From Lophium mytilinum (lineage: Eukaryota; Ascomycota; Dothideomycetes; Mytilinidiales; Mytilinidiaceae), in contig MU004198.1 in the NCBI GenBank assembly GCA_010093605.1, forward strand, positions 316,456 to 380,455: a stretch of 64,000 nucleotides of DNA, given 5' to 3'. The position numbers and the translations under genes were made by a program. Below, piece by piece: positions 30,809 through 35,347 of this stretch; the first letter of the stretch is position 1; every line of letters begins with the position of its first letter. The notes below the pieces were generated by a model, which was not told the DNA's origin, made no database searches, and saw only the letters and a list, made by a program, of their open reading frames with translations.

Positions 30809-33800
30809 TCAAAACGACCGGAAATGATGAGAGTCAGCCGAGGAGCGGCTCGTGGTTTGGTCCCGCAGACGTGTTTCGAATGAAACATCCTTTCTGAAAT
30901 TTATCCTTCTAATTCTCGCTTGCTTCTGGATGTTCGTCGGAGAAATTACGCTTGCATCCTGCACTGCCCGCATTGACAACTTGCCCTGAGTTATTATATT
31001 CCGTCGAACTTCAGTCAAGTTGAGTGTGTCATCCTGTACTTCCCGCATTGACAACTTGCCCTGAATTATTAGATTCCGTCGAGCTTCGGCTATATGATTC
31101 CCTCGAACTTCAGTCAAGTTGAATGTGTCCCGCCGTTTTGGTCCAGAATGTTGTATCCTTGCTTTCGTTGTTGTAGCTGTAGAACCGAGTTTCGTAGGCG
31201 AACGAGAAGGCTCCATAAGCGTCGTCGCCAGGTCCTGCACTGGCCGCATTGACAACTTGCCCTGAATTATTTGATTCCGTCGAACTTCAATCAAGTTGAA
31301 TGTGTCCCGCCGTTTTGGTCTAGGCCGTTGTATCCTTGCTTTCGTTGTTGTCGCCGTAGGATCGGGTTTCGTGGGCGAACGAGAAGGCTTCATAAGCGTC
31401 GTCGCCAGGGACAGCAAACTGCTAGGCTGTGAGTTTTTCGATGGAGAAGAGATGATCACATTTGGTCTCATTGAATTATTTTCCTCTAGATGATCGAATG
31501 GCGTTGCGTGCTTGCTGGGGACCGTCTTTCCGGACACTGAGTCATCTGATTGTTGACTGTCAATCTCTTGCGAGACAGCCGGATTCTCGTCGACAAGCTT
31601 CATAAGCGCAAGATTCTTCTCCATAACCGTCAAAAGCTTCTCTTTGAGCTTGATGTTAGTTTCCCTGAGAGCACTGTTCTCTTGCTTGAGACTGCTCTCT
31701 TGCTGCTCAGAGCTACGGATACTTCCAGCAAACGTAAGCCCACCGCTGGCCTGGTCGTGATCTTCCCTCGGACTCCATACTGCGCTATGGGGATCATTCT
31801 CCATAGATGCATCTGACTGAAAGTCCATGGCCTGACGCAGGAACTGAACAGCTTCCCCTGCTGCTGCACGCGATGCTCGATCTTTGGACGCATACAGCTT
31901 CTCACCTCCAAACACATGTCCAGGGCGCTGCGAAATCCGAACTTCACAGGAGAACTCCGTGCCATGCATTCTGAACGAGAACTGAGGCTGACCAGACTTG
32001 GCGTAGTAACACACTAAACGTAGAGCGTCCGCATGGGTTGCCATGTTAGACACAAGCTCAGAGCCGGTAGGAGCAATAGAGTTCGGGGAGGAGGCAGAAG
32101 GCAAGCCAACATCTTTCTGGGTGGACTCATTCTTCTCCGCTGTTGTATCCCATACTCCAAAATGTCCCGTCTCATGCAGATACTTGACAGCCTCCCATGC
32201 CGCTAAATCCCGGGCTTCAGTTTGTATCTTTCCCTTCCCTCGAAACACGTGCTCGGGCCGTTGCGGGATTCTCAATTCACATGAAATTCCCGCGGGCTGA
32301 TCCTCAAATGAAACTTTTGGCGATGTTTGAGATTTAGTATGAGTGCTGAATAAGTGAATGAACTCGAAGCTATTTTTCTCTTTACTAATAGAGTGTTTAA
32401 GTGGTGCCACAACTGAATTTATAAAGGTCTTCGTGCTGTTGGAGGTAGACTCTAGCGTTGTCGAGTTGGATATATTCTCCATTTCTACGCCCGGCATTCT
32501 TATCATTCGTTTTTCGCGCAAGAACTGGATAGCTTCCATTGCGGCAGCTGTGTTCGCACTACGTTTAGTGGGAAATAGGTTTCTTCGGCCTCCGAAACCA
32601 GCCTCGGACAGTCGCGGAACTAGCAATTCGCAGGAAGACCCGGTGCTATGGTCGTTGTATGTGTGAAACGACGGCTTGCCGGAATCTGTAATCAAACAGA
32701 ACTTGTGAAGAAAGCCGATGGCAGATTTTTGCTCGGAGAACACGCTTGGGTCTTCATCACTCACTTCGTTCCACGCAAAGAGTCGAGCTTCATATAGTGA
32801 GTGGATAATCTCTAAGTGTGCAGCTTTGTGGGCTTCGCGTGCCGAAGGAAATGGCCTGTCGTGTCCTCCGAAAATGCGCATAGGCCATGGCGGGACTCGA
32901 ATTTCACAAGAGAATCCGGCGTCGTGCTGCTCGATCAGCTTTGAAAAGGATGAGTCGCACCTCATGTGTAGACAAAATTCAGAAAGAAACAGGAGCAATT
33001 CTCCTCTGTTGTTGATGTTACTTTTCATGGAATTCGTTTGACTAACAGACGTCTGCTTTCCCATGAACCTAGTCCAGGCTTTGAACAACGCGTTGTTCTG
33101 CAAGTATTGGATCGCTTCCAACGCCGCAGCAGACTTCGCCCGCTCTTGCGAATCATACAGCGTGTCCCTGCCTCCAAACACTTGTCCTGGCTGGTCGTAT
33201 GGCGGTTCGATTGTAAGATTGCAATAATAGTCGGGGCCGTTGGTCCCAAAGACGTAATTCTGGGGGCCATATCCAATCACCCGGCATAACCTTTGGAGGT
33301 AAGAGATGGCAGTCTGCTCTTTGAGAGCGTTGGAGCCCCAAGGCGCGGCGGCGGTCGAAATCTCAGTGTTAGGATCGCTTACCGTGGTCGTGGCATTCGT
33401 GGCAATCTCAGTCGTACCAGTCTCCTTTATAGTACTGGGAAATCCGAAATCTTTCTGAATAGAGCTGTACGTGATTTCTCTTGTCTTCTGCTGCGGATCC
33501 AAGGAGTCCAATGCGATAGCGCAAACTGCCTCTCGTGCCTCATCAGCGGTCCCAAATCGGTCTCCGCTTGCAAAGATTCTTGCTTCCCCAGTCAACTCTA
33601 GCTGGACACGCAATCTTGCCCCGATATTAGCCGAGAGACCGGTGCATTTGAATATTACATTTGATGGTAAGTGAGACAAACGCCATAGGCCAAAGCGTTC
33701 ACGGTATCGGTGCCTCGCCCACGGCGCATAGGTTAGCAGCCCTTCCTTTTCCAGCCCTTCCAGCATCTGCAATGCAGCAAGTTCGGCGTTAAGTGATGTG

Positions 33801-35347: not shown

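What the first reader, a model, noticed from the sequence alone, without database searches (positions are those of the whole stretch)
30809..35347. Poly-dsRBD-like protein, possibly a new RNA-binding scaffold
Seen in sequence: at least five consecutive modules of about 70 residues with a shared G-x-SCE-x-x-(V/I)-P ... FGG ... AA-x-EAI-x-FL pattern, preceded by four weaker units of the same order, then a coiled coil and basic repeats, in one 1.5-kilobase-codon gene without any catalytic motif. Known: dsRBDs come in one to five copies in Dicer, ADAR, Staufen and NF90 proteins. Inference: up to nine tandem units in one fungal protein would be unusual, and a role in RNA silencing or antiviral response is possible.
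Basis: partly seen in the sequence, partly recalled or inferred. Interest (0 to 1): 0.78.

Follow-up and report, generated by a model that had tools for sequence, protein, structure and literature searches.

The report
Fungal protein with tandem dsRBD-like units
A fungus has one large protein built from a long row of repeated domains of the kind that normally grips double-stranded RNA, but most copies lack the usual RNA-gripping amino acids, so it more likely works as a protein-binding scaffold than as an RNA binder.

Summary
The gene (window 30809-35347, minus strand, 1512 aa) belongs to Lophium mytilinum, a Dothideomycete. It carries five clear dsRBD-fold modules (D1-D5). Of four weaker units before them (N1-N4), three exceed shuffled controls and N4 is only plausible.

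Both sets trace to a three-dsRBD protein in the same genome: the D modules resemble its second dsRBD, and the N units, less firmly, its first, in the same order; its third was not found. The protein is best read as an amplified paralogue. Two database searches found no other full-length homologue.

The RNA-binding claim is weakened. Region-3 basic positions are kept in 43 of 45 cases in the paralogue family but 9 of 27 here; only D3 keeps both leading ones. That is the mark of Type B dsRBDs, which bind proteins (PMC5716075). With a leucine-zipper-like run and a basic tail, the likeliest role is a multivalent protein scaffold, possibly near the RNAi machinery. Expression, binding and function are untested; drift of an orphan is a serious rival.

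The parts
35398..35489 (-). Exon 1 of the NCBI gene model (31 codons, the last one completed by the first base of exon 2)
   Evidence: P0002 starts with these 31 residues; exon and GT...AG intron were located. Not checked by RNA.
35349..35397 (-). 49-nt intron of the NCBI model
   Evidence: Boundaries read from the sequence, positions
34469..35347 (-). N-terminal region, residues 1-293, basic (net +15), no recognised domain
   Evidence: No Pfam match for residues 1-280 or, in this part, for the whole protein; no profile match to N, D, R1, R2 or R3; residues 1-292 find only themselves in the genome; charge
34238..34468 (-). N1, dsRBD-like unit of first-dsRBD (R1) type, residues 294-370
   Evidence: Leave-one-out 34.6 bits against a shuffle maximum of 8.9; hhalign to R1 79%
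34007..34237 (-). N2, dsRBD-like unit of R1 type, residues 371-447
   Evidence: Leave-one-out 28.9 bits; hhalign to R1 24%
33713..33985 (-). N3, dsRBD-like unit of R1 type, residues 455-545
   Evidence: Leave-one-out 12.0 bits, above the shuffle maximum of 8.9; hhalign to R1 39%
33464..33712 (-). N4, plausible dsRBD-like unit, residues 546-628
   Evidence: Leave-one-out only 1.8 bits; hhalign to R1 4.5%. AlphaFold: second and third strand and the last helix at block pLDDT 66-83 (model residues 31-80); the first 30 residues, with the first helix and first strand, are at 33-56
33074..33322 (-). D1, dsRBD-fold module, residues 676-758
32774..33010 (-). D2, dsRBD-fold module, residues 780-858
32498..32734 (-). 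D3, dsRBD-fold module, residues 872-950; the only unit with both leading region-3 basic residues (K, R)
32153..32383 (-). D4, dsRBD-fold module, residues 989-1065
31823..32047 (-). D5, dsRBD-fold module, residues 1101-1175
31604..31690 (-). Leucine-zipper-like heptad run, residues 1220-1248
   Evidence: L-x6-L-x6-L-x6-V-x6-L, 0 of 2000 shuffles for a pattern set after seeing it
31091..31409 (-). 177-nt tandem repeat (1.8 copies) coding part of the basic C-terminal tail
   Evidence: 90% nucleotide identity over 44 codons, dN 0.107 and dS 0.102

Best explanation
The protein is an amplified paralogue, so far seen in one species, of a protein family with three dsRBDs (R1-R2-R3). R1-type units were multiplied to about four (N1-N4) and R2-type units to five (D1-D5), R3 is gone or unrecognisable, and a leucine-zipper-like run and a basic tail follow. 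Shown by computation: the fold of D1 and the homology of D1-D5, the match of N to R1 and D to R2 in the same order, and the loss of most dsRNA-contacting basic positions. Inferred: most units now act as Type B dsRBDs that bind proteins; the zipper pairs two chains, giving a hub with many docking sites; the basic tail, D3 and perhaps the N units add weak nucleic-acid or nuclear-import contacts. The likeliest partners are other dsRBD-fold domains, such as those of Dicer or the three-dsRBD paralogue, because in animals and plants Dicer cofactors use such domains to pair and to bind Dicer. Partner identity is a guess.
Against: No binding, expression or partner data. Net charge is positive in 7 of 9 units and higher on the whole than in the 15 paralogue domains, which range from -3 to +2, so non-canonical RNA binding is not excluded; D3 keeps K and R. 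DUF283 of Dicer-2 binds dsRNA through few residues (PMC9279154, passages), so loss of the lysines is not proof. The R1 HMM scores the N units only 0.3-10.1 bits, just one of them (N2) above its shuffle maximum of 7.1, and scores D5 higher (12.6), so the N-to-R1 link rests on the pooled profile. N and D profiles do not match each other (3%). No orthologue was found, so selection on the modules cannot be measured. Bootstrap support for a single D clade is only 77.
Confidence: 0.48

Rival explanations
1. A true multivalent dsRNA-binding scaffold: many weak dsRBDs in a row, helped by positive charge and a basic tail, coat or bridge long dsRNA, for instance of mycoviruses or transposons, and feed Dicer.
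For: dsRBD fold; positive net charge in 7 of 9 units, and +44 for the whole protein; D3 keeps K and R; the genome holds Dicer-, Piwi- and RdRP-type genes.
Against: Both leading region-3 basic residues survive in 1 of 9 units, against 14 of 15 paralogue domains. The region-1 glutamate survives in 1 of 5 D modules, against 5 of 5 R2 domains, and a GP in the beta1-beta2 loop only in D1 (both read); the R2 domains have no GP there either.
Confidence: 0.22
2. A drifting orphan: internal duplication in a redundant paralogue, relaxed selection, no important function.
For: No homologue beyond itself; long branches for N and D units; weak codon-position signal, GC 0.521/0.455/0.525; C-terminal repeat with dN about equal to dS; another repeat nearby.
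Against: The frame stays open over 1520 codons while other frames hold 50-84 stops each. Modules only 28-33% identical to D3 still keep the dsRBD core.
Confidence: 0.25
3. An array derived from the Dicer dimerisation domain (DUF283) rather than from the three-dsRBD family.
For: Best Pfam family is Dicer_dimer. The tree places the DUF283 of one Lophium Dicer-like gene next to D1-D5 with bootstrap 73. That single DUF283 sequence matches the D profile at 64% and R2 at 88%.
Against: D matches R2 better (98.4%, score 76.2), and N matches R1 in the same order. A whole-genome search with D5 finds the other D modules and the paralogue's R2, not the Dicers. Only one of two DUF283 sequences was used, so the comparison is uneven.
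Confidence: 0.05

Closest known systems
Three-dsRBD protein family (Lophium BU16DRAFT_619117 = P0003; Mytilinidion resinicola BDZ99DRAFT_496000; Alternaria ventricosa J4E93_008560; Coniosporium uncinatum LTS18_004516; one metagenome protein)
   Same: Domain types R1 and R2 in the same order; FG(G/S) motif of R2; same genome
   Different: Three domains, not nine; keeps region-3 basics in 43 of 45 positions; has R3; 365-614 aa (the 365-aa one is from a 1224-base contig and may be cut) instead of 1512
Type B dsRBDs of TRBP, PACT and Loquacious (third dsRBD) and Staufen dsRBD5
   Same: dsRBD fold without the critical region-3 lysines (PMC5716075, passages); D1 aligns with Staufen dsRBD5 and with chains of Loqs and TRBP complexes
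   Different: Those occur once per protein beside RNA-binding Type A domains; here at least five, probably eight or nine units in a row
Dicer dimerisation domain DUF283 (PF03368)
   Same: Highest Pfam score; a non-canonical dsRBD fold used for protein contacts and, in Dicer-2, dsRNA contacts (PMC9279154, passages)
   Different: No helicase, PAZ or RNase III match here; many copies
Staufen (five dsRBDs)
   Same: Several dsRBDs, some of them called pseudo-dsRBDs (PMC6477676, passages)
   Different: Fewer units, animal protein, no shown relationship beyond the fold

Membership tests
dsRBD superfamily | Alpha-beta-beta-beta-alpha fold in the D modules | tested here: met
dsRBD superfamily | N1-N4 also of this fold | tested here: inconclusive
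   N1-N3 above shuffles, N4 not; no Pfam dsRBD match for any of the four; structure modelled only for N4, with a poor first third
Type A (dsRNA-binding) dsRBD | Region-3 lysines (KKxAK) at the start of helix 2 | tested here: not met
   Both leading positions basic in 1 of 9 units (D3); 9 of 27 positions in all
Type B dsRBD | The pair of critical region-3 lysines not kept | tested here: met
   8 of 9 units lack the basic pair (some keep one residue); D3 is the exception
Type B dsRBD | Mediates protein-protein interaction | not testable with these tools
   Needs binding assays
Three-dsRBD family | R1 then R2 type domains in order | tested here: met
   Pooled profiles; single-unit support is uneven and the R1 HMM is not specific
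Three-dsRBD family | R3 domain | tested here: not met
   No profile match of N, D, N-terminal or C-terminal parts to R3
Dicer | Two RNase III domains and a helicase | tested here: not met
   Pfam scan of the whole protein found only Dicer_dimer and dsrm above cut-off

The most novel reading that the evidence does not exclude
A nine-unit (eighteen with zipper pairing) dsRBD array that has swapped RNA binding for protein binding: a multivalent hub that clusters Dicer, the three-dsRBD paralogue or other dsRBD proteins into assemblies, or titrates them as a dominant regulator of RNA silencing in one fungal lineage.
Probability: 0.13. Interest if true: 0.75.

Novelty: new variant of a known kind. 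Interest (0 to 1): 0.4.

Why it matters
dsRBDs are known mostly in one to five copies (recalled; Staufen's five seen in PMC6477676). A protein that multiplied two ancestral dsRBDs into a row of eight or nine, while losing most RNA-contacting residues and carrying a zipper-like run, is a natural test of how RNA-binding domains turn into protein-binding scaffolds. The three-domain paralogue in the same genome gives a ready control.

Tried and rejected
Structure of D3 with the other four modules as alignment gave mean pLDDT 67.3 and pTM 0.36, and its Foldseek search found nothing at E below 0.001. I take it as an under-informed model, not as evidence of another fold, because D1 with 13 aligned rows folded well.

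Sequence search of the PDB with the whole protein found nothing. The D profile gave 14 marginal hits, best E 0.024 (AncD1D2), mostly dsRBD proteins but also antibody chains. The N profile gave none. Foldseek with the second model reached E below 0.001 once (2n3f, tandem dsRBDs of DRB4). The VIA rows cover almost only D1; N4 was barely tested.

Direct comparison of N with D profiles gave only 3% probability, and N with R2 0.3%, with 37 of 200 column shuffles scoring as high. D also matches R1 (92%, 0 of 200 shuffles). Units taken singly are uneven: against R1, N1 79%, N2 24%, N3 39%, N4 4.5%; against R2, D1 96%, D2 21.5%, D3 97%, D4 57%, D5 97%. The R1 HMM gives N1 6.9, N2 10.1, N3 0.3, N4 2.6 but also D1 7.0 and D5 12.6, with a shuffle maximum of 7.1, so by itself it does not single out the N units.

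An N-terminal extra dsRBD (residues 131-290) was suspected by eye and not supported. Alignments A4 and A7 were dropped because the R1 or N4 strands were misplaced. In A5, used for the model, N1-N3 fall partly in D1's columns and N4's first helix is not aligned. In the region-3 count the row of the Dicer DUF283 was left out because its alignment was shifted.

Full-length relatives: two searches of about 5.8 billion proteins scored 7993 and 7646 candidates and returned only the protein itself. The method needs shared 5-residue words and similar length, so more distant relatives could be missed. The five proteins of the three-dsRBD family are a lower bound for the same reason.

Literature: searches for tandem dsRBD proteins in fungi, for Lophium mytilinum with genome, and for proteins with many dsRBDs showed no paper on this protein or on a nine-dsRBD protein among the titles and abstract starts listed: 5 of 5, 0 of 0, 15 of 54, 12 of 59, 10 of 67. 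Only open-licence PMC papers are held. Passages of PMC12663654 and PMC10418863 named no fungal dsRBD cofactor of Dicer.

Full report
What was checked. The reading frame at 30809-35347 on the minus strand codes 1512 residues without a break. The NCBI protein BU16DRAFT_566810 of Lophium mytilinum is the same protein with 31 more residues at the front. Its first exon lies at 35398-35489, with a 49-nt intron before the main exon. The species is a Dothideomycete of the order Mytilinidiales. The five other frames over the gene hold 50-84 stops each.

The repeats. I placed five modules by eye at residues 676-758, 780-858, 872-950, 989-1065 and 1101-1175 and tested each with a profile of the other four. 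Scores were 39.8-55.0 bits, against 7.8 for the best of 2000 shuffles with the five-module profile. Each module alone matches the Pfam Dicer dimerisation domain at E 1.9e-5 to 5.7e-3, only D3 above the curated cut-off, and D1 also matches dsrm just below cut-off. For the whole protein the two families reach 1.1e-19 and 1.2e-5, both above cut-off. No catalytic family appears.

Origin. A whole-genome search found one other relative, E 5e-4. It is a 464-residue protein with three dsRBDs, also found in Mytilinidion, Alternaria, Coniosporium (all Dothideomycetes, recalled) and a metagenome. Profile comparison joins the D modules to its second domain (98.4%, score 76.2) and the four N units pooled to its first (95.9%, score 49.6). 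Column-shuffled controls never exceeded 18.5 and 17.5, with 0 of 200 reaching the real score in either case. A model of the second domain alone finds all five D modules in register at 3.6 to 34.0 bits. A model of the first domain finds the four N units in register but weakly (0.3 to 10.1 bits, one above its shuffle maximum of 7.1) and also scores D1 at 7.0 and D5 at 12.6, so the N-to-R1 link is the softer of the two. Nothing matches the third domain. Two matches in the same order are best explained by shared descent followed by internal amplification. A tree of 78 columns agrees in outline: N1-N3 form a clade with bootstrap 94, D1-D5 one with 77, and D plus R2 plus DUF283 one with 92. It also puts one Dicer DUF283 beside the D modules at 73 and places N4 apart, next to the first domain of P0007, so the detail is unresolved.

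How many units. D1-D5 are certain. N1, N2 and N3 score 34.6, 28.9 and 12.0 bits in leave-one-out tests with R1 added, against a shuffle maximum of 8.9. N4 scores 1.8 and rests on position and a partial structural model. The count is thus five certain, eight supported and nine plausible.

RNA or protein binding. Three basic positions at the start of the second helix contact dsRNA in canonical domains. They are basic in 43 of 45 cases in the paralogue family and in 9 of 27 here. Both of the two leading positions are basic in 14 of 15 paralogue domains and in 1 of 9 units here, D3. PMC5716075 (passages seen) defines Type B dsRBDs by the loss of RNA-contact residues, including two critical region-3 lysines, and by binding proteins instead. 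PMC11309768 (passages) gives the three contact regions. The region-1 glutamate is kept only in D2 among the D modules (read). Against this, 7 of 9 units are net positive, more so than the paralogue domains, and DUF283 of Dicer-2 still touches dsRNA through few residues (PMC9279154, passages). Weak or non-canonical binding therefore remains possible.

Other parts. A heptad run of L, L, L, V, L at 1220-1248 looks like a leucine zipper (0 of 2000 shuffles, pattern set after seeing it). The last 220 or so residues are strongly basic, +25, and include a recent 177-nt repeat with dN 0.107 and dS 0.102 over 44 codons, that is, no sign of constraint there. Residues 1-293 match nothing.

Setting. The genome has two Dicer-dimer matches besides this gene, 16 Piwi matches of which three are long and open, and six RdRP matches at four places. 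RNA silencing genes are thus present, but nothing ties this protein to them. Of the 32 reading frames of 140 codons or more listed, I scanned 20 besides this gene. They include a urease accessory protein (UreD, 36400-37527), an IF-2B-type and a TFIIIC-type protein, an MFS transporter in pieces, and a pair of small related proteins without Pfam matches. None suggests a function for this gene.

Judgement. The protein is a new variant of a known kind: an enlarged, mostly Type B-like dsRBD array. The scaffold mechanism is inferred, not shown. Drift of an orphan is a live rival because no orthologue was found and expression is unknown.

Noticed in passing
window 27416-28009 (-) and 29267-29998 (-): Two neighbouring reading frames code related small proteins (31% identity over 143 columns, E 8e-9) with a shared QCCP.CM cysteine motif and no Pfam match.
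   Followed up: partly
window 30273-30731: A 162-bp tandem repeat (2.8 copies, a multiple of three) lies just downstream of the gene and is partly open in the same direction.
   Followed up: no
genome G000:C1 about 829-840 kb and 2188-2190 kb (loci L010-L014): Clustered Piwi-domain pieces, several with in-frame stops, besides three long open Argonaute-like copies on other contigs: possible expanded or decaying Argonaute paralogues.
   Followed up: no
window 1-2124 (-) and 60903-62879 (+): An NPHP3_N/NACHT-type ankyrin protein and a HET-domain protein, both of kinds linked to fungal self/non-self recognition (the link is recalled).
   Followed up: no
window 18001-20000: GC drops to 0.36 against about 0.5 around it, as in a decayed transposon (not examined).
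   Followed up: no
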